Source: Fratercula arctica (taxonomy: Eukaryota > Chordata > Aves > Charadriiformes > Alcidae). From it: a DNA stretch of 64,000 nucleotides. Where the stretch lies: contig CANTUZ010000025.1 in NCBI GenBank assembly GCA_947846985.1, positions 16,304,100 to 16,368,099 of the forward strand. Direction: 5' to 3'. Shown piece after piece: positions 50,670-60,406 of the stretch. Each line of letters begins with the position of its first letter. Position 1 is the first letter of the stretch. Position numbers and translations under genes: made by a program. Under the pieces are notes generated by a model. It worked only from the letters and a program-made list of their open reading frames with translations. It made no database searches and was not told where the DNA came from.

Positions 50670-51207
50670 TGTTATAAATACTCCGAGTCCGTAAGGAGTT
50701 TAATAAATGTTTATTAGATAAGAAAGCAAAAGCAGCGCTGGGCGGCCGGGGAGTCGCAGCTCCACAAAGGCTCGCAAATTCGAATGTCTCAAGCAACTCC
50801 TTTTATCTTCTCGGGGGTGGGTTTCAGCATCCTTAGTCTCCGCCAGGTGCCCCCCTATAGATTGCCGGGTCAGCTAACATATACAAGGATCTGCACCGAG
50901 ACACAAGCTCAACAAACAAATGGGCATGAGAACGGCGTCACGGGCAGCCGCTCAAGGACATCAGTCCTTCATGGCAACATTCCCCAGGTCTCATCCCTTC
51001 ACCCAGATAAGGCAGTCATCCGTAGCAACAGCTGGCAGTATATCATATCATGACATTTACTGCTAGTATAGCAATTAAGTCTTATCGCAAGACAGGATGT
51101 CCTGCTTCACAGAGCAGGACACTTCCATTGCTTGTTTGGTGCAATAATTACCCTCCTTGTTCAGCTCTCCTGGTCATCAGCAAATTACCTGTTAGTCACC
51201 TATTGCA
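50670..51207 (-). repeat. 3' LTR of the class I provirus (538 bp)
   Basis: On the minus strand it runs from TGCAATAGG to ATAACA. It is identical by eye to the 5' LTR at a constant offset of 9199 bases. A TATA-like GATAAAAGG is at 50799-50809, a poly(A) signal AATAAA at 50710-50715 (minus), and a small hairpin-capable 'actccgagtccgtaaggagt' at 50680-50699. Confidence 0.95.
50701..50716. terminator. Two-way poly(A) signal in the LTR
   Basis: TAATAAATGTTTATTA is an inverted repeat: AATAAA is read at 50702-50707 on the plus strand and at 50710-50715 on the minus strand. The minus-strand signal serves the provirus. The plus-strand one could end antisense or host transcripts. The same sequence is at 59900-59915 in the other LTR. 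Confidence 0.7.
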
Positions 51208-51221
51208 ATTCCCCCTTTCTG
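51208..51221 (-). promoter_or_regulatory. Polypurine tract
   Basis: The minus strand reads cagaaagggggaat between the env stop codon (51222-51224) and the start of the 3' LTR. It primes plus-strand DNA synthesis. Env ends directly at it, showing how compact the element is. Confidence 0.88.
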
Positions 51222-53144
51222 TTATTTACCAGTAATTTGCTGATCAAATCTAGATAATACCTCATAGGCTCTATCCAATCTAGAGTTTTCATCCGGTATG
51301 ATGTCCATTTCTAGTTGTGACTGCTTTATTACCATCAACTGTACTTTCTCTAACCTGTTTTTAATAAAGGTTACAAATTTATTAATGACACAGGGTCCAA
51401 AAGTCAGAGCCACTACTAGCATTATGAAGGGCCCTGCCAAGGTAGAAATTAAAGTAGTCAGCCACGGTGATTGGTTAAACCACGATTCATACCATGAGGA
51501 CTGAGCTTCTCGTTCTCGTTTTCGCTTCTCTAATCCTTCTCTTAGTTTGGCTAGCGAATCTCTCACTACCCCTGTATGGTCAGCATAAAAACAACACTCT
51601 TCACCTAAGGCTGCACATAGTCCTCCGTTCTGCAAGAACAGGAGGTCCAATCCTCTTCGATTTTGTAAAACCACTTCAGACAATGAGGTTAGAGATTTTT
51701 CTAAGTAAGAAATAGACTTTTCTATTCGGGTCAGATCCTCGTCCACTGCCGCTCTCAAGGACAATAGACCTCGATGTTGCAGGGCTAGAGAAGCCGCGCC
51801 GGTGGCGGTTCCTGCGATCCCTAAGCCAACTAAAGTAGCTATAGTTATTGCGGATATCGGTTCCCTCTTTTCTATCCTATGTTTGGTACTTCCCCAATGT
51901 AAATACATACTTTCTTCGCTATGAAAAAAGATCTTAGGTACCACAGTAACTTGCACACAAAAGTCTGAGTTATTTTTCAGAACGATCGTGGACAAACACG
52001 GAGTCAGTCCAGTTTTGGAACAAGCCCACCATGCCCCTGGACTAGGCAAGACCCATTTGATCCCGGTAGCAAAACTTTTGGTTTGGTTAGTACATAGACT
52101 TTGTCTCCCTCTTGGTACTGTCCCTACACACGAACCTTTTCCTCGGACTTGTTGCAGGGTGATTCCCGCAGTGCGTGCTTTCCAGTCACAGCCGGGAGGT
52201 ATGGTCCCATTGGTGATATTAAAAGGGGATGACACTGCTATTCCCTCATAGAAAGGTGGTTCTGAGTTGTAGCACAGCCAACAAGAATTAGTAAGATTCG
52301 GGTTGGTCATGTTTAAAGTCTGGTAAGCTGCTTTCATCATAGTCCATAAAGGTACTTGGGGTGGGTCCCATGCCTCATTGGTAGGAGTGGGATATGCTTC
52401 AGTGGGATATGCTTCTGAGGAGTTAACGACCTCAGGCTTCCCCAATTGCCCGTTGAGGAGATCATTGGGCCCTACTACCACGGTCGGGGTTTGTTTAACC
52501 TCGCGTTTCTGAATAAATATTAGCCCTCCCTGGTCTGTCCCCAGTTGCGAGTATCGAAAACCCCAGGTTCGCCCTATGAGCCAGCCGGGATCATCTGGCT
52601 TATGGACTGCTAAATATATACTACCATTGCAGAGAGGTTTCCTATCCGAGGAGGCTCTTGTTCCCCACTGGCCATAATGACGAGTCCCTCCCATTCCTGT
52701 GGGTAGTCGGCACCCTATAGGGACCCATTCGGTGCTTAAAAATTGATCTTTGACAATGGGGATCCAGGCTGAGGCAATTGTTTCACATCCCCAATAAGCA
52801 CAATAATAATGTCCTGGGGAGTTGCAATAGCCTCTTCCTGGGTTGGAGCTGGGGCACATGTAGTAATGGAATCGATCCTCACAACGTCCTTGAACTTGCT
52901 GTGCTGGTACTAATTCACAAGGGGATGTCAGGAACCTTGGGGCCCCCGCTGTGATATTTGTCTTTAAAATAGAATATTCTCTACTTCCAAGTACCCATTC
53001 ATAGGGTTGATGGTATGGGTTTCCCCATGTTGTGGTGGCGAGGATTAAGATTCCCACTTTTGCAGCACTCCTCTGCCTTCCTCGTCTACTCTTTTGCAGA
53101 GAGCAACGGGATTTTAGCTTCTTCTCGGCAGCAGTGAGTGATCT
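51222..53144 (-). CDS. env: Envelope glycoprotein (gamma type), no ATG at its start
   Basis: The frame is open from the TGA at 53145-53147 to the stop at 51222. The best-supported protein begins near 53057, at a GTG rather than ATG, with a basic stretch just upstream and a short hydrophobic run ('GILILATTTW') that could be a signal peptide core. Numbering from 53057: Cys-rich surface domain with 'GHYYCAYWGCETIASAW' (83-99), a CWLC disulfide-exchange motif (259-262), several Asn-x-Ser/Thr sites, an R-x-x-K-R cleavage site (394-398), a hydrophobic fusion-peptide region (401-422), the conserved retroviral transmembrane-subunit segment with CX6CC (481-489), and a membrane anchor (about 534-556). 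CWLC plus CX6CC means the covalently linked gamma type. It has no internal stop. The initiating ATG is probably supplied by splicing. Confidence 0.9.
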   Translation of the reverse strand, partial: RSLTAAEKKLKSRCSLQKSRRGRQRSAAKVGILILATTTWGNPYHQPYEWVLGSREYSILKTNITAGAPRFLTSPCELVPAQQVQGRCEDRFHYYMCPSSNPGRGYCNSPGHYYCAYWGCETIASAWIPIVKDQFLSTEWVPIGCRLPTGMGGTRHYGQWGTRASSDRKPLCNGSIYLAVHKPDDPGWLIGRTWGFRYSQLGTDQGGLIFIQKREVKQTPTVVVGPNDLLNGQLGKPEVVNSSEAYPTEAYPTPTNEAWDPPQVPLWTMMKAAYQTLNMTNPNLTNSCWLCYNSEPPFYEGIAVSSPFNITNGTIPPGCDWKARTAGITLQQVRGKGSCVGTVPRGRQSLCTNQTKSFATGIKWVLPSPGAWWACSKTGLTPCLSTIVLKNNSDFCVQVTVVPKIFFHSEESMYLHWGSTKHRIEKREPISAITIATLVGLGIAGTATGAASLALQHRGLLSLRAAVDEDLTRIEKSISYLEKSLTSLSEVVLQNRRGLDLLFLQNGGLCAALGEECCFYADHTGVVRDSLAKLREGLEKRKREREAQSSWYESWFNQSPWLTTLISTLAGPFIMLVVALTFGPCVINKFVTFIKNRLEKVQLMVIKQSQLEMDIIPDENSRLDRAYEVLSRFDQQITGK

Positions 53145-53301
53145 TCAGGGGAATCTACTGCCTCTCCTTTCGCCGCGCGTTGCTCCCTGCTCTGGCTTGG
53201 GCAGAGGTCTGCTTATTGCTAGTCTTTCTAATGCAGCCCTGACTCCCCTCGTACGGGAAACTTCTCTATTCCACGAATCTTTGTCAAATTCCTTAAGCTT
53301 G

Positions 53302-53868
53302 TCACAGTCTACTAACTTTCCACAAAAATGTTCCTAATATTTTTGTCTGTCTAATCCCTCTTATATGCTTCATTAGCTTATATAGATCCCACCAAATTAG
53401 GCTTAAACCCCAATGTTCATTGTTTTCTATCACAAACCGTATATTCCTGCTAAAGTTATCTGGGTACCCCTCCGTGGTTGTCCAGTTCCGTTCCAACGTA
53501 GGATATAGATGTCGTTCTAGAGTCTCGTACTGATACCGATCCTGGCACGTTGGACACACGCCTCTGTGAAAAAGCACTATACAATTAGTTATATTTGTTC
53601 GTTTACACCTCCCACACTGATAAAACACCCAAAACCCACACATGAGGGTTTTGCACTGGCAAACTCCTCTCAGTCTCTGTTCAGCTTTCCAGCTGCCCCA
53701 ATAAGCTCTGGGATTATTAATTATCCCTTCGGTTATGAACAGTAGCTGGTCACTGTTCCTGGGGAGACCAGACCCCGTGACCTCTTTTTTTTTTTTTTTT
53801 TTTTTTTTTACCAACGGCGATAAAACCCTGTGCCACCGACTCTGCCTTCGTCTAAGGACTTCCGCTGG
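53302..53868 (-). CDS. Accessory ORF B: Cys-rich protein, paralogue of ORF A
   Basis: The frame is open from after TGA 53869-53871 to the stop at 53302, between pol and env. It has no ATG in its first part: the earliest in-frame ATG is at 53643. Translation may therefore depend on splicing to an upstream start. An A25 tract (minus strand) encodes eight Lys. Numbering from the TTG at 53814: Cys at 52, 54, 59, 67, 70, 78, 87 and 90, with 'WVFYQCGRCKRTN' (62-74) and 'CPTCQDRY' (87-94), then a Trp/Tyr-rich end 'HWGLSLIWWDLY' (134-145). The pattern W-x4-C-x2-C-x7-C-x8-C-x2-C closely matches ORF A. A zinc-binding fold is likely but inferred. No known family recognised. ORF A ends 40 bases upstream of the beginning of this open frame. 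Confidence 0.7.
   Translation of the reverse strand, partial: PAEVLRRRQSRWHRVLSPLVKKKKKKKKEVTGSGLPRNSDQLLFITEGIINNPRAYWGSWKAEQRLRGVCQCKTLMCGFWVFYQCGRCKRTNITNCIVLFHRGVCPTCQDRYQYETLERHLYPTLERNWTTTEGYPDNFSRNIRFVIENNEHWGLSLIWWDLYKLMKHIRGIRQTKILGTFLWKVSRL
53785..53809 (-). repeat. A25 homopolymer (T25 on plus) inside accessory ORF B
   Basis: A run of 25 identical bases in the N-terminal part of ORF B encodes poly-Lys. Reverse transcriptase or polymerase slippage here would change the reading frame. It could also be a site of sequencing or assembly length error. Confidence 0.85.
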
Positions 53869-53907
53869 TCAGAGATCCGGCCTTTCCATATATCGGGGAA
53901 TCCGTTA

Positions 53908-54435
53908 CTATGGTTCCCACCCATCGGGGTCTTGGAATTGCCCCTGGGCGACCCTGATTGCACACTGCCTTAGCACCCGGTACCAATCAGACTCATATAC
54001 CTCCCACAATTCGGGCAGTAGTAATTCCCAGCCGCAAAAGAGCTGAACTATTTGGTCCCCATTTGCTCCAAGGTGTCTTCGGCAGCGCATGCAATTAGAC
54101 TGCCTGTTAAAAGCTACACAAGACCAATGATCGCCGCAGTGACAACATTTACACACCACCCAACTTAAATGTCCGTGGAGAGGGTGTTTTAAACAAGGGA
54201 TCGCCCCGACGGTCGAAGTAGGGGTTTCTGGTATCCCAGTTTCTACCTCACAACAAAGTGAGAGTGTCGTGGAGGTCTCTGTGATTCTATATACCCCAGC
54301 CCCACCAGTTTGTGGGGGTAAGCGCTCCCTGGACCAGGGTGCGGAGTATACTTTTCGGAGGGTATGATCCGACTGCACCTGAAACCACCGGTAGAGACTG
54401 CTTCGGACCCCTTCCCCTTCTTCTGAATTAGTCAT
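53908..54435 (-). CDS. Accessory ORF A: Cys/His-rich protein between pol and env
   Basis: 175 codons from ATG 54433-54435. This overlaps the stop of the integrase frame (TGA 54432-54434) by two bases, as expected for a compact viral genome. Cys at 61, 62, 81, 95, 97, 98, 100, 106, 115 and 118, with His at 84, 88, 99 and 103. The core 'SWVVCKCCHCGDHWSC' (91-106) plus 'NCMRCRRH' (114-121) gives W-x4-C-x2-C-x5-C-x8-C-x2-C. The C-terminal 'GWELLLPELWEVYESDWY' (135-152) parallels the Trp-rich end of ORF B. No hydrophobic membrane segment is evident. It is not part of pol or env and I do not recognise the family. A zinc-binding regulatory or accessory protein is my inference from the spacing and position. 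Confidence 0.75.
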   Translation of the reverse strand: MTNSEEGEGVRSSLYRWFQVQSDHTLRKVYSAPWSRERLPPQTGGAGVYRITETSTTLSLCCEVETGIPETPTSTVGAIPCLKHPLHGHLSWVVCKCCHCGDHWSCVAFNRQSNCMRCRRHLGANGDQIVQLFCGWELLLPELWEVYESDWYRVLRQCAIRVAQGQFQDPDGWEP

Positions 54436-57400
54436 TCACTTAGTGGCTGTCGTTGTAGTCTTACATGGAGAGTTCCTGGTTCTGGCACCGCGGTCCACTT
54501 CTCCGGGGGAAGCGGTCCTTTAATACGGCTAGCATGGGTCCATCCCTTTTCCGCTGTCCGGACTGCCGTATCTGTTGTAAGCAAGACAACAAAGGGGCCT
54601 TCCCAACGTGGTGTCAGGGAGGTTTCTTTCCAGGTTTTGATTAGTACTTGGTCCCCAGGTTGAACGCGATGTATAGAAACGTCTAAGGGAGGTCTCTGTA
54701 CTACCAATCCTTTCTTTTGCAACTCTCACCTCCTTCGTGTGAGTTCTAAAATATATTCTGTCAGAAGTTTGTCCTCAACTTTTGGATGCTCTATTAATAA
54801 CCCAAAGTCATAGGGCATCCCATATAACATTTCAAAGGGGGAGATACCAGTATCCGTCCTTGGCTGGGTCCTGATATACAACAGTGCTAATGGTAAGCAC
54901 TTGACCCAATTCATTTTCGTCTCCACCATAAGTTTGGTTAGGTGTTTCTTTATCTCCCCGTTCATTCTCTCTACTCTCCCAGAACTCTGTGGGTGCCAGG
55001 GGGTGTGATATTCCCACTTCGTACCAAGAAGCTCAGTAGTTTCTTTAATAATTTTAGACGTGAAATGTGGGCCTCGGTCCGAATCAATCACCGCAATGGT
55101 CCCATATCTTGGAATGATTTCCTCCAAGAGAATTTTAGTGACTGTTTTTGCGGTAGCTCTTACTACTGGGAAAGCTTCTACAAAGTGGGTGAGGTGGTCA
55201 ATCAAGACTAATAAATACTGATATCTTCCTACCTTTGGCAATTCAGTAAAATCTACTTGTACTTTCTCGAACGGTCGTTTAGCCAATTCACGACCTCCTT
55301 GGACCTTTTCCCTAAGTTGTCGCTTGTTTATTTTATGGCAAGTTAAACAACCCTCTAGAGTCCTCTTTGCTAGGCCATAAATTCTGACGCAGGCATACTT
55401 TGTTTCAAACTGGTCTACTAACGCTTGAACGCCCCAGTGGGTTTTATGGTGTAATTTATTCAGTATTCCCCGTGCTAACCCCTTTGGAAGGATTTCTCTG
55501 CCGTCTGGTAACAGCCATCTATCGCCCTCTCTTTTTGCTCCAATTTGTTTTAGCTTGTCTAATTCTCGGAGGGTAAAGGTTTTTTCTAAGTTCAGTCTTT
55601 CAGGTTCCTCTCTCAAGGCCTGAACCATTAATAATGCCGCTCGTTTTGCTTCTGCATCGGCTATATTGTTTCCTCTTACCGTGGGAGTCAGTCCCCTTTG
55701 GTGTCCCCTTACATGTACTATAGCTATTCTCAGTGGACCCCTTAATGCTTTCAAAACTTCTAAGATTAGTTTCTCGTGGACTAATCCTTTCCCCTGGGTG
55801 TTGATTAGGCCTCTCTCCTCCCAGATTTTTCCAAAAGTATGTACTACCCCAAAGGCATACTTGGAATCAGTATAAATAGTCCCTGCTTTATTTTCTAAGA
55901 GCTTTAATGCTCTTAACATAGCATATAACTCGCATGCTTGTGCGGACCAAGTTTTGTCCAATGGTCCTGATTCCTTTATCTGAAAGGTATGCCCATCTAC
56001 AATAGCATATCCTGATTTTCTTTTTCCTTCCACTACTCGTGAAGAACCGTCTATAAATAATTTCTCCCCTTCCTCTAATTCCTCCTCTTCTAAATCTTCC
56101 CTTATCTTTGTCTGTAAATTTATTAGTTGGAGACAGTCATGTACTAAATCTTCTTTAGGCTCCCCATATAAAAATTGAGCAGGGTTCTGAAGGGAGGTGG
56201 CTTCTATTTCTAATTTGGGGGAGTTAATTAAAATACCTTCATATTTTAGCAATTGACTGTCCGTGAGCCATTTATCAGCTCGTTGTTGCAACACTCCTCG
56301 AATATTATGGGGAGTATATACTTTTAGTTCACCTCCTAAGGTGACTTTTCCAACTTCTTCCACTAATAATGCCGTGGCTACTATAGCTTGTAAGCAGGTG
56401 GGCCATCCACGACTTACAGGGTCCAGAATTTTAGAATAATAGCCCACCGGCTTCCTCTGTCCAGCCCATCCTTCGGTTAAAACCCCATAGGCTGTCCCAT
56501 TATCTACATTGATAAAAAGTTGAAAGGGTTTGCGAATATCGGGTAAACTGAGAACAGGTGCTTCTACCAGATCTCTTTTTATGCTCTCCCATCGGTCCTC
56601 ATCCTCAGGGAACCATTTTACCAACCCATTTTTAGTTAATTTTTCGTACAAGAACTTTACTTTACTGCTGTAGTTTTCTATCCATTGTCGACAATACCCT
56701 AATAGCCCTAATAGTTGTCTTATTTGTCTTTTGTTAGTTGGTGCTGTTAGAGACAAAATGCCTTTTACTCTCTCGGGATCCAGCTTCTTATACCCTTTTA
56801 TGAGCCAATGCCCTAAATATTTCACCTCTTCTTCAGTAAACTGCAATTTGGACTTTGAAACTTTCAACCCTTTAAGACCCAAAAAGTTCAATAATTTGAT
56901 ACTCTCATTTCTGACTTCTTCCTGAGTTTTTCCAGCAATCAATAAATCATCTACATATTGTATTAAGACTAGTCCCTGACTCAGTTCATAAGATTCTAAT
57001 AGCTGTTCCAGGGCTTGTCCAAACAAGTTCGGGGATTCCGTAAATCCTTGGGGCAAAACAGTCCACCGTAATTGTTGTTTCCTATGGGTATTGGGGTTTT
57101 CCCATTCAAAGGCAAAATAGTCTCTACATTTCTCTTCTAAGGGACAGGCCCAGAAAGCATCCTTCAAATCTATAACACTATACCATTTATAATCTGGGCT
57201 TAACTGGTTAAGGATAGTATGGGGGTTAGCCACCACAGGGAACCGGGTAATAGTTCGTTCATTTACCGCCCTTAGATCTTGTACTAAGCGATAAGACCCA
57301 TTCGCCTTTTTTACGGGTAGTATAGGGGTATTGTGGGGAGACATACAGGGCTCCAAGAGTCCTTGTGTTAAAAGTCTCTCAATTACCGGTTGTAATCCTT

Positions 57401-57709
57401 CTCTCCCCTCTCTAGAAATGGGGTATTGTTTTATCTGGATGGGCTGGTCTGGGGTCTTTATGGAAACGGTGATTGGCTTAATGTCTAGTTTTCCCACCGA
57501 CTCTGGGCTAGACCAGGTTTCTGGATTGATCTTGGCTTCATCTTCTGCAGTTAACAAGCATAATCTGGCTATTAATTTTTCTGCTTTTACCTCTAGATTT
57601 ATCCCTAAATCTACCATTAAGTCACGTCCCAAAAGGTTATATTCTGCTTCCGGAACTAATAAAAATGTCCCCACCCCATACTTGTTGGGGGTTTCTATTG
57701 CTACATTCT
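54432..57709 (-). pseudogene. pol: pol: end of protease, reverse transcriptase, RNase H, integrase; one in-frame TGA
   Basis: One long open frame runs from the frameshift in protease (about 57709) to TGA 54726-54728, then the same frame continues to 54432. Numbering from 57674: protease end 'LLGRDLMVDLG' (14-24), reverse transcriptase with 'YSVIDLKDAFW' (first catalytic Asp, 169), 'VLPQGFTESP' and 'YVDDLLIAG' (240-248), RNase H with 'KLFIDGSSRV' and 'IYTDSKYAFG', integrase zinc domain 'LHHKTHWG...CLTC', and core 'IDSDRGPHFTS' plus 'SGRVERMNGE'. The integrase C-terminal domain ('WEGPFVVLLTTDTAVRT', 'WTHASRIKG') lies after the TGA. The frame would be normal for a gammaretrovirus but for that stop and the protease shift, so this copy probably cannot make full enzyme. 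Confidence 0.92.
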
Positions 57710-57922: not shown

Positions 57923-57925
57923 CTA
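57910..57925 (-). promoter_or_regulatory. UAG readthrough signal between gag and pro
   Basis: The minus strand reads GAT TAG GGG GGT CAG GGG, with pro continuing in the same frame after the TAG (57923-57925). In murine leukaemia virus the gag stop is followed by a similar G-rich context and suppressed a few per cent of the time by a Gln tRNA with help from a downstream pseudoknot. The close match of context suggests the same mechanism. I did not fold the pseudoknot. Confidence 0.8.
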
Positions 57926-59365
57926 ATCTTCCTTAAAAATCTCCTCATCTTGTATTCTCTTTCGGCAGTTCCTCTGTATATGTCCCTTCTTGCGACAATA
58001 AAAACACTCCGCATTTCGTGGACTAAATCCTCTCCTTCTTAATTCTACTGGGTCTTTCCGAGAACTTTCCCCCTTAGCCTGATTCTGTCCTTCCCTTACA
58101 GCTGCCACCAGAATTCTGGCTTGTTTCTTCTGGTTTTCTTCTTCTCTTCTCACATACACCTTCTGAGCCTCTCTCAGTAACTCATCTAACCCTCTTTCCT
58201 GCCAATCTTCTATCTTCTCTAACTTCTTCCTTATGTCAGTCCAAGATTTAGCTACAAATTGAGTTTTCAGTAGGGCTTGACCCACCTGACTATCGGGGTC
58301 TAACCCAGAATACAGTTGTAAACTCTTTCTCAATCTTTCTAACCATTCGGTGGGGGTTTCATCTCTTTTCTGTTGTTCATTAAAAGCCTTATTAATATTT
58401 TTTCCTCTGGGTACAGAATCTCTAATCCCCTGAATTATCATATCTCGGAGATCAACCATATTATTTCTATGTGCTGGGTCTTGGTTGTCCCAATTGGGCC
58501 GCTGTAAGGGCCATTTTACATCCCCGGCAGGACCATGCTGATGTCTTTGATCCCAATGCCTCATACTGGCAGTTCTGATCATTCCTCGTTCTTCGTTCGT
58601 GAATAATATTCTTAAAATGGACTCCATTTCGTCCCAAGTGTAGATATTAGGTCCGAGGAATTGATCCAAATGCTCTGCTACCCCTAATGGGTCCTCTAAC
58701 AGATGTCCCATTTCTTTCTTAAATTCTCTCACATCCCCGGAGCTGAGAGGTACAGACACAAACCCCACTCCAGGCTGTGGTCCCCCCATAGCAGTCTCCC
58801 TTAAGGGGTATAATAAACTTTCCTCTCTCCTTTCCCTAGTTTGACTTCTAGTTATTCTTTGATTAGGAAGAGGGGTCTCCTCCCCAGATTCCGTGGGGAC
58901 TGTTGGAGGGAGATTTGGCTCAGGACCCGGTGGAGGGGGAGCATAGGGTGGGGGAGACGTTGGAGGTTCGCCTACATCCCACTTCCTCCTTTTATCAGCT
59001 TTCTTTTCCTTTAATGAAAACAAGTTCGTAACTTGTGTTATGCCTTGGATCCAAAAAAAGGCGTACTCGCTTTCCTCCTTATTAAATGGTCGTTTGTTGT
59101 TAACATATATGTTTAATTGTTGGCATATCCAATCCTCAGACGACCCATAAATTGGCCAGCGTAGGTCTTTTCTTATCTGTTTTCCTCCCCATATCTCCAT
59201 ACAATAATGGACCATTTTCTCCCTAGGTTTCTCTTTCCGAGAAGGGGAACTATCCCAATATTGGATCATTAAGCCTAACGGGCTACCTGGGGGTATATTA
59301 GGAAGCCTACCCCCACCCCGTTTCTCCTGTATGGAACCAGAAGTTTTACCGTTCTTCTGTCCCAT
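57923..59365 (-). CDS. gag: Gag polyprotein (matrix, capsid, nucleocapsid)
   Basis: 480 codons from ATG 59363-59365 to TAG 57923-57925. I chose this start over the GTG 11 codons upstream because it gives 'MGQ', a myristoylation start as in other gammaretroviral Gags. In order: matrix with a basic stretch; a Pro-rich linker with 'PPPY' (138-141), a late-budding motif; capsid, with 'VPLSSGDVREFKKEM' near its start and the major homology region around 'RDETPTEWLERLRKSL'; a charged segment; and one CCHC zinc knuckle 'CFYCRKKGHIQRNC' (454-467) before a short acidic end. One knuckle and PPPY fit class I. No internal stop or frameshift seen, so Gag could still be made. Confidence 0.95.
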   Translation of the reverse strand: MGQKNGKTSGSIQEKRGGGRLPNIPPGSPLGLMIQYWDSSPSRKEKPREKMVHYCMEIWGGKQIRKDLRWPIYGSSEDWICQQLNIYVNNKRPFNKEESEYAFFWIQGITQVTNLFSLKEKKADKRRKWDVGEPPTSPPPYAPPPPGPEPNLPPTVPTESGEETPLPNQRITRSQTRERREESLLYPLRETAMGGPQPGVGFVSVPLSSGDVREFKKEMGHLLEDPLGVAEHLDQFLGPNIYTWDEMESILRILFTNEERGMIRTASMRHWDQRHQHGPAGDVKWPLQRPNWDNQDPAHRNNMVDLRDMIIQGIRDSVPRGKNINKAFNEQQKRDETPTEWLERLRKSLQLYSGLDPDSQVGQALLKTQFVAKSWTDIRKKLEKIEDWQERGLDELLREAQKVYVRREEENQKKQARILVAAVREGQNQAKGESSRKDPVELRRRGFSPRNAECFYCRKKGHIQRNCRKRIQDEEIFKED

Positions 59366-59846
59366 CTTCCGAAAGTGCCTTCTTTCTTGTCCACTCACTC
59401 ACTTCCCTCCGTTCGTGGCCCACGCCCTCGCGGACTATGGGAACCGCACTACTGGGAGGTCCACACTCACTTCGTCCGGTGGATTACTAAATCCGATGGA
59501 CGTCTCCTTCACTCGCACTTCGGGTATCCAATCCCTGACCGAACGGAACCACAATATACTTACCCCAGAGTCTTCATTCGATACATCGAACGGGAACCAC
59601 AATTCCAGACTCACTCTGGAGTCTTCGTTCGGCTTTTCCGAATGGGATCCGCTACATACTCACTTCCGAGTCTTCGTCCGGGTCTTCGTGCACAAAGATT
59701 ACGGGGAAACAAAACTGCAGTATCTCTTTCTTTTTGCTTTCTCACCTCCGTTTGGAAAATCCAGGTTAGCTAGCCCGGGACTCCCTCCGGGACCATCCGA
59801 AGATGGGGCACCTTCCCAGAGTTGAGTTCCGAAATCAGCTGTCTGG
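59366..59846 (-). promoter_or_regulatory. 5' leader with repeated splice-donor-like motifs
   Basis: Between the primer site and gag. The minus strand has GT(G/A)AG(T/A) motifs at 59740-59745, 59658-59663, 59609-59614, 59558-59563, 59465-59470 and 59397-59402 (with an overlapping one at 59393-59398). Several sit in a degenerate repeat built on 'cgaagactc...gtgagt...gtggttcc'. The motif at 59558 reads GGG|GTAAGTAT, close to consensus. The one nearest gag lies just upstream of its ATG. The packaging signal should also lie here but I cannot place it. Confidence 0.65.
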
Positions 59847-59868: not shown

Positions 59869-60406
59869 TGTTATAAATACTCCGAGTCCGTAAGGAGTTT
59901 AATAAATGTTTATTAGATAAGAAAGCAAAAGCAGCGCTGGGCGGCCGGGGAGTCGCAGCTCCACAAAGGCTCGCAAATTCGAATGTCTCAAGCAACTCCT
60001 TTTATCTTCTCGGGGGTGGGTTTCAGCATCCTTAGTCTCCGCCAGGTGCCCCCCTATAGATTGCCGGGTCAGCTAACATATACAAGGATCTGCACCGAGA
60101 CACAAGCTCAACAAACAAATGGGCATGAGAACGGCGTCACGGGCAGCCGCTCAAGGACATCAGTCCTTCATGGCAACATTCCCCAGGTCTCATCCCTTCA
60201 CCCAGATAAGGCAGTCATCCGTAGCAACAGCTGGCAGTATATCATATCATGACATTTACTGCTAGTATAGCAATTAAGTCTTATCGCAAGACAGGATGTC
60301 CTGCTTCACAGAGCAGGACACTTCCATTGCTTGTTTGGTGCAATAATTACCCTCCTTGTTCAGCTCTCCTGGTCATCAGCAAATTACCTGTTAGTCACCT
60401 ATTGCA
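59869..60406 (-). repeat. 5' LTR of the class I provirus (538 bp)
   Basis: Identical by eye to the 3' LTR. It drives transcription on the minus strand. The TATA-like GATAAAAGG is at 59998-60008 and the poly(A) signal AATAAA at 59909-59914. The 89-codon open frame seen on the plus strand occurs in both LTRs and has no coding support. Confidence 0.95.

What the first reader, a model, noticed from the sequence alone, without database searches (positions are those of the whole stretch)
53302..54435. Two tandem, paralogous Cys-rich ORFs between pol and env of a gamma-like endogenous retrovirus
Simple gammaretroviruses go straight from pol to env. Here about 1.1 kb holds two open frames, each with the same spacing W-x4-C-x2-C-x5/7-C-x8-C-x2-C and a matching Trp-rich tail (W-x-L-x-L-...-W-[ED]-x-Y). 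ORF A begins with an ATG overlapping the pol stop. They look like a duplicated zinc-binding accessory gene, comparable in layout to the duplicated accessory genes of complex retroviruses. I know of no described family with this motif, but that is not a search result.
Basis: partly seen in the sequence, partly recalled or inferred. Interest (0 to 1): 0.88.

Follow-up and report, generated by a model that had tools for sequence, protein, structure and literature searches.

The report
Extra zinc-finger gene in bird retroviruses
Several recent virus insertions in one apparent bird genome share a small, conserved, probably zinc-binding gene between pol and env, a place where viruses of this type are thought to carry no gene; some also carry a second, possibly related one, which is broken in the copy examined here.

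Summary
ORF A (175 aa) is intact and starts at an ATG overlapping the pol stop. The host genome shows 37 A loci including this one (a lower bound) in three lineages (95-100%, 56-62% and 41-44% identity) plus one decayed locus in an element with class II-type integrase end and gp85-type env; three more relatives (53-57%) are in a protein database. Lineage I against the others: pS 0.76-0.89, pN 0.23-0.40, so A was kept as a protein. ORF B is a real gene but interrupted in the 10 lineage-I copies seen; it is open for 242 codons in three lineage-II copies and not detected in lineage III. A and B share a Cys/His pattern (0 of 300,000 shuffles; designed after inspection); duplication is likely, not proven. 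No Pfam or PDB relative passed threshold, and structure prediction failed. Best reading: an undescribed accessory-gene family encoding a zinc-binding adaptor against a host factor. Function is inferred only; species and expression are unknown.

The parts
59869..60406 (-). 5' LTR (538 bp, TG...CA); 5-bp CTGAT just outside both LTRs
   Evidence: 540/540 identical repeat with 50670-51209; boundaries read
50670..51207 (-). 3' LTR, preceded by a purine tract
57923..59398 (-). gag ORF (listed from a GTG; ATG read at 59365)
   Evidence: Gag_p30 E 1.9e-27
54726..57674 (-). pol ORF (protease end to integrase core); stops before its C-terminal domain in this copy
   Evidence: RVT_1, RNase_H, rve; best PDB match 5dmq_A, an RT/RNase H p80 chain, E 1.2e-154; 1mml_A, named MMLV reverse transcriptase, E 7.7e-62
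54432..54722 (-). rest of pol: integrase C-terminal domain, cut off from pol by an in-frame stop
   Evidence: MLVIN_C E 9.4e-12; pol runs through to the start of A in L018 and L027
53908..54435 (-). ORF A, accessory gene, 175 aa, intact; ATG overlaps pol stop
54082..54195 (-). ORF A Cys/His module (C81, H84, H89, W92, C97, C100, C115, C118)
53962..54042 (-). ORF A Trp-rich tail (CGWEL..P.LWE...W)
   Evidence: invariant residues; a low-confidence model (pLDDT 53) shows two helices here
53305..53868 (-). ORF B main part, 188 codons stop to stop, no ATG start
53785..53809 (-). A run (25) inside ORF B; 18-61 long in the other nine lineage-I copies
53545..53661 (-). ORF B Cys module (C-x-C-x4-C-x2-W-x4-C-x2-C-x16-C-x2-C)
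53148..53324 (-). ORF B C-terminal part, in a different frame from its body
51222..53057 (-). env ORF; in this copy no ATG in frame at its start, though other copies have one (seen in L018)
   Evidence: TLV_coat E 9e-122

Best explanation
Gene A, between pol and env, is a viral accessory gene family that makes these apparently avian gamma-like retroviruses 'complex'. Shown: it is conserved as a protein across lineages with different LTRs, primer-binding sites and env genes, and it lies in the same place. Inferred: it is made from a spliced subgenomic mRNA (or by reinitiation at the ATGA overlap) as a small soluble protein in which seven to eight Cys/His residues bind one or two zinc ions, and a Trp-rich tail contacts a host protein. 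The likeliest role is a Vif/Vpr-like adaptor that neutralises a host antiviral factor. Gene B is probably its diverged duplicate with a longer C-terminus; it is complete in lineage II, broken in lineage I (this window) and not detected in lineage III, so it is dispensable at least for germ-line amplification.
For: 37 A loci in the host genome: lineage I 10, II 5, III 21, one decayed (lower bounds), with the order pol-A-(B)-env in the loci fetched; three further relatives at 53-57% identity in the protein database. A, lineage I against others: pS 0.76-0.89, pN 0.23-0.40; B between lineages: pS 0.81-0.88, pN 0.27-0.36. Changes in A concentrate at third codon positions, and shifted frames are less conserved and hold 5-14 stops. 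Recently mobile elements: LTR identity 540/540, 500/501 and 536/536. Strict ligand pattern in 7 of 8 A and 4 of 5 B proteins, 0 of 300,000 shuffles. A changes faster than integrase (pN 0.23 against 0.11 for I-II, 0.27 against 0.08 for I-II', 0.39 against 0.26 for I-III), as a host-facing protein may.
Against: No expression, splicing or binding data. Candidate splice acceptors are weak, and the one shared upstream of A by the window, L026 and L029 is missing in L031. Structure prediction failed (pLDDT 35 and 53) and no fold search ran. Zinc binding has no direct support: only sub-threshold zinc-ribbon hits (window B to the IS91 transposase domain E 0.0011; L029 B to Fpg and SprT models E 0.35-0.4), and P0003 lacks two of the four ribbon Cys. 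Hydrophobicity is low (19-residue maximum 0.62-1.62) but lineage-III A at 1.62 is borderline for a membrane segment. Faster change alone does not show conflict with a host. A regulatory role is as compatible with the sequence.
Confidence: 0.45

Rival explanations
1. A (and B) are regulatory proteins of the virus's own RNA: a zinc-ribbon RNA/DNA-binding factor acting in transcription or export of unspliced RNA, like Tat/Rev/Rec in role.
For: CxxC...CxxC ribbon spacing; complete lineage-II B is basic (pI 9.2-9.4) and 7 of 8 A proteins have pI 8.0-9.0; weak hits of B to nucleic-acid zinc ribbons.
Against: The window's own A is acidic (pI 6.1) and by reading lacks an Arg-rich stretch; B of L029 as it reads has pI 5.8; B is not found in lineage III and is broken in lineage I although both multiplied; A occurs with at least two unrelated LTR types (lineage-I LTR gives no match in L031 or L035), so LTR-specific action is less likely.
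Confidence: 0.3
2. A is a virion structural or Env-assembly helper that travels with env as a cassette.
For: In the loci seen A lies directly upstream of env or of B and env; a decayed A relative precedes a gp85-type env in an element with class II-type integrase end, and lineage-III env shares weak similarity with that env.
Against: Lineages I/II (full TLV_coat env) and III (TLV_coat match in the TM part only) both keep A, so A does not follow one env type; pol and A divergences rise together across lineages I-III.
Confidence: 0.15
3. A and B are remnants without function (decayed env, host insert or chance ORFs).
For: B is interrupted in all 10 lineage-I copies seen; several copies of A are broken too.
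Against: Protein-level constraint on both, 29 of 37 A loci without a stop or break, no env match in A or B, no non-viral relative among the host-genome hits.
Confidence: 0.03

Closest known systems
Gammaretroviruses (MLV type) and class I ERVs
   Same: Gag_p30, MLV-type RT and integrase C-terminus, TLV_coat env
   Different: A review lists ALV, MLV and MPMV as simple viruses without accessory proteins (PMC12789967, passages seen); this clade has one or two extra genes between pol and env
Lentiviral vif / vpr-vpx
   Same: Position between pol and env; small Cys/His proteins; possible tandem duplicates (comparison recalled)
   Different: No Pfam match for any of 8 A proteins at E up to 10 and no viral family for 5 B proteins; different ligand spacing; no sequence relation shown
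Zinc ribbons such as the IS91 transposase Zn domain (PF14319)
   Same: CxxC...CxxC spacing; window B hits it at E 0.0011
   Different: Below Pfam's cut-off (19.3 against 26.3 bits) and only one of five B proteins hits
Gene capture in crocodilian ERVs (KIT-ligand, nectin3)
   Same: Extra gene in an ERV, with purifying selection reported (PMC4299795, passages seen)
   Different: Those are recognisable host genes; A and B match no family above threshold and no non-viral locus found
OVEX1 avian ERV
   Same: Avian ERV with three ORFs
   Different: The paper reports no obvious accessory ORFs (PMC2717909, passages seen)

Membership tests
Gammaretrovirus-like (class I) ERV | MLV-type Gag p30, RT, integrase C-terminal domain and TLV_coat env | tested here: met
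   (Gag_p30 1.9e-27, MLVIN_C 9.4e-12, TLV_coat 9e-122)
Gammaretrovirus-like (class I) ERV | Simple genome: nothing between pol and env | tested here: not met
   A lies between pol and env in the window and in fetched loci of lineages I-III. All were found by searching with A, so this is not a rate. One copy of another class I lineage (L058) goes straight from pol to an env-like ORF
Complex retrovirus | Conserved extra gene under protein-level selection | tested here: met
Complex retrovirus | Spliced mRNAs expressing it | not testable with these tools
   no RNA data; splice-site scan inconclusive
Lentiviral Vif/Vpr | Match to Pfam accessory-protein profiles | tested here: not met
   0 families for 8 of 8 A; 8 weak families, none viral, among 5 B
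Lentiviral Vif/Vpr | Vif HCCH zinc spacing (H-x5-C-x17,18-C-x3-5-H, recalled) | tested here: not met
   read from the alignment: H89-x5-C95 is present but the later Cys and His spacing is not
Zinc-ribbon protein | Two CxxC knuckles | tested here: met
   7 of 8 A, 4 of 5 B; P0003 and L018 B fail
Zinc-ribbon protein | Bound zinc / ribbon fold | tested here: inconclusive
   AF2 pLDDT 35 and 53; fold search never ran
A and B as paralogues | Sequence homology beyond a motif | tested here: inconclusive
   hhalign probability 9.8%, E 0.0033; 28-residue tail block 0 of 500 column shuffles, but 12- and 20-residue blocks 8 and 12 of 500, and the B side rests mainly on one row; BLASTP nothing, E 1.7

The most novel reading that the evidence does not exclude
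A previously undescribed zinc-binding accessory-gene family circulates among bird retroviruses across the class I / class II divide, moving by recombination as an [accessory gene + env] block, and has spawned a duplicate; 'simple' avian retroviruses of several kinds are then partly complex, with an antagonist of an unknown bird restriction factor.
Probability: 0.35. Interest if true: 0.9.

Novelty: new variant of a known kind. Interest (0 to 1): 0.77.

Why it matters
Accessory genes mark where viruses meet host defence, and gamma- and alpharetroviruses are treated as simple (PMC12789967, passages). A gene family kept through deep divergence, in proviruses so recent that LTR pairs are identical or nearly so in the three measured, gives a direct handle on an unknown host factor, and a case in which presence, possible duplication, breakage and absence of an accessory gene can be read in one genome.

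Tried and rejected
Rejected: chance ORF (third-position excess, frame controls); decayed env (no env match in A or B); host gene (the loci looked at, the window and 36 others, are proviral). Led nowhere: protein search with ORF B (5 candidates, none scored) and with the B alignment (1878 candidates, none scored); viral-contig scans with A, B, two A alignments, the B alignment and pol and genome contigs with an A alignment, none confirmed; PDB searches with A and B and their alignments gave only hits at E 0.17 or worse; AF2 of A and of its C-terminal part, poor; ten paper searches of an open-access library, in whose listings I recognised no description of this gene. That supports 'not found in that library with those words' only. 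Splice-site scan: no clear conserved acceptor. Within-lineage dN/dS: too few changes (ratios 0.26 to 3.5). Never answered: a search for more relatives of the decayed A of L052, one with complete lineage-II B as query, and the fold search. Not examined: integrase fragments at 57-59% identity with no A hit near them (for example C25:2413277 and C25:22918253), and most copies of the class I lineages with about 50% or 40% integrase identity.

Full report
Setting. The window lies in a 28.4-Mb contig (C25) of a 1.21-Gb genome. CR1-like 3' ends (label recalled) and an ERV-rich contig like the W chromosome of birds (recalled) suggest a bird; the species is not known. On the minus strand a provirus runs from 60406 to 50670. 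Its LTRs are identical over a 540-base repeat, of which 538 bases are TG...CA LTR by reading, with CTGAT on both sides. Gag, pol and env are gamma-like by Pfam. The best PDB match of pol is an RT/RNase H p80 chain (5dmq_A, E 1.2e-154; MLV type, recalled), and a chain named MMLV reverse transcriptase follows at E 7.7e-62. After the 5' LTR comes TGGTGCCGTTACTCGGAT, which resembles a tRNA-His primer site (recalled).

The finding. ORF A (53908-54435) is an intact 175-codon frame whose ATG overlaps the pol stop. ORF B (53302-53814) is open but has no ATG start. BLASTP finds no A-B match (E 1.7), so their likeness rests on motif and profile.

Other copies. Searching the host genome with A gave 40 rows, and with lineage-III A 38 rows; the tool calls such counts lower bounds. 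Merged, they make 37 loci: lineage I, 10; lineage II, 5 (one, L029, distinct and called II' here); lineage III, 21; and one decayed locus on C3. Of the 37, 29 show no stop or break in A (8 of 10, 2 of 5, 19 of 21, 0 of 1). In part of lineage III the frame of A runs on to 229-255 codons instead of 187. 24 of the 37 are on C25, which is 2.3% of the genome; some there may be segmental duplicates. I fetched 36 loci besides the window: 9 of lineage I, 5 of II, 21 of III and the decayed one. In the 35 of lineages I-III, A follows a match to the end of pol, and env follows in all but L036 and L047, where no env match was found; many lineage-III copies and L022 have lost much of pol. B was found at 15 loci (10 lineage I, 5 lineage II) at E 1.7e-35 or better; the next hits had E 1.3 or worse. 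B was not detected in lineage III; in the lineage-III copies printed, env follows A directly.

B is a broken gene in this lineage. In L026, L027 and L028, B is open for 242 codons stop to stop and starts with an ATG that leaves 237. L030 and L029 have one stop each. In all 10 lineage-I copies the match to the B body ends at a common point, and where the C-terminal part was detected (7 of 10) it lies in a separate frame; L017 and L025 have further breaks. The stop after an upstream ATG was seen in all 9 copies in which the script located that segment (not located in L017), and an A run of 18-61 bases is present in 10 of 10. B was thus probably already interrupted in the source of lineage I.

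Selection. Nei-Gojobori counts. A, lineage I against II, II' and III: pS 0.76-0.89, pN 0.23-0.40; II against II': pS 0.71-0.72, pN 0.22-0.23; II and II' against III: pS 0.80-0.85, pN 0.38-0.39. B between lineages: pS 0.81-0.88, pN 0.27-0.36. Integrase: I against II pS 0.86, pN 0.11; I against II' 0.65, 0.08; I against III 0.90, 0.26. Synonymous sites are mostly saturated, so no exact ratio is given. Near-identical copies within a lineage gave ratios of 0.26 to 3.5 on few changes. For A, the true frame keeps 61% (I-II) and 45% (I-III) identity, against 38% and 21-24% in shifted frames that hold 5-14 stops. For the B body the third-position excess is weaker (0.57-0.62 against 0.28-0.40).

Motif. 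Invariant in 8 of 8 A proteins aligned: among others C62, C81, H84, H89, W92, C95, C100, W104, C115, C134, W136, W144, W151; C97 and C118 are lost in P0003 only. B: C70, C72, C77, W80, C85, C105, C108 in 5 of 5; C88 lost in L018. The joint pattern is met by 7 of 8 A and 4 of 5 B proteins and by 0 of 300,000 shuffles of one B protein (a looser one by 3 of 300,000). It was designed after seeing the sequences, so the figures are a guide. In six frames of the window it hits only A and B. hhalign of the families aligns A's tail with B's far C-terminus at probability 9.8%, E 0.0033; in my column-shuffle test that 28-residue block beat 500 of 500 shuffles, but 12- and 20-residue blocks were reached by 8 and 12 of 500, and the B side there rests mainly on one row.

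Beyond one virus. LTRs: L029 500/501 identical with a His-like primer site; L035 (lineage III) 536/536 with a Pro-like site (names recalled); L026, L027 and L031 gave no usable LTR pair in the stretches fetched. Other copies were not dated. So A sits in clearly different, recently mobile viruses. The decayed locus L052 carries an A relative (34% over 88 residues, tblastn E 6e-12 with the window's A; 33% over 105, E 6e-15 with lineage III; alignments cross stops), preceded by an integrase end matching PF00552 (E 1.7e-9) and followed by an env matching Avian_gp85 (E 7.8e-15). It is a single, 5'-truncated, broken element, so the cross-class claim rests on one locus. Its env shares weak similarity with lineage-III env (22% over 187 residues, E 8e-9). 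The one copy examined of a neighbouring class I lineage (integrase 53% identical, L058, 601 bases) goes from pol straight to an ORF that starts like a signal peptide by reading, presumably env (no Pfam match), with no A. One search also lists integrase fragments at 57-59% identity with no A hit nearby; these were not examined.

Mechanism. Shown: conservation, position, constraint. Inferred: spliced expression, zinc binding, solubility (hydrophobicity low, borderline in lineage III), adaptor role. I favour a host-factor antagonist because A changes 1.5 to 3 times as fast as integrase at amino-acid-changing sites, is kept with different LTRs and env genes, and has a likely duplicate that comes and goes; a regulatory RNA-binding role is the main rival.

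Literature. One review lists ALV, MLV and MPMV as simple (PMC12789967, passages); another notes that unknown accessory genes are hard to recognise (PMC1224870, passages). OVEX1 (PMC2717909, passages) and crocodilian ERVs (PMC4299795, passages) offer no match in what I saw. I recognised no paper describing this gene in the listings of ten searches of an open-access library (calls in Tried and rejected).

Noticed in passing
window 59398-59745 (- strand): The leader between 5' LTR and gag carries seven GT[AG]AG donor-like sites (two of them four bases apart), of possible use for multiple splicing.
   Followed up: no
L052 (host C3:5945200-5951460): A decayed element combining class II-type integrase end, an A relative and a gp85-type env.
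   Followed up: partly
window 53785-53809 and L017-L025: A run of 18-61 bases inside B in the 10 lineage-I copies, a length-variable tract that changes the frame between copies.
   Followed up: partly
window 51222-53057 and 54722-54726: This copy's env has no in-frame ATG at its start and its pol has an early stop, although its LTRs are identical, so it may have been copied with help from other proviruses.
   Followed up: no
L031-L051: Lineage III has a Pro-like primer site (L035), an env whose TM part alone matches TLV_coat (L035), and a pol about 60% identical to lineage I: probable env exchange.
   Followed up: partly
host contig C25: 24 of 37 A loci lie on a contig that is 2.3% of the genome, like the ERV-rich W of birds (recalled).
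   Followed up: no
L022: Internally deleted copy: LTR, then the last part of pol, A, B, env and the second LTR; the two LTRs match the lineage-I LTR equally (98.7%).
   Followed up: no
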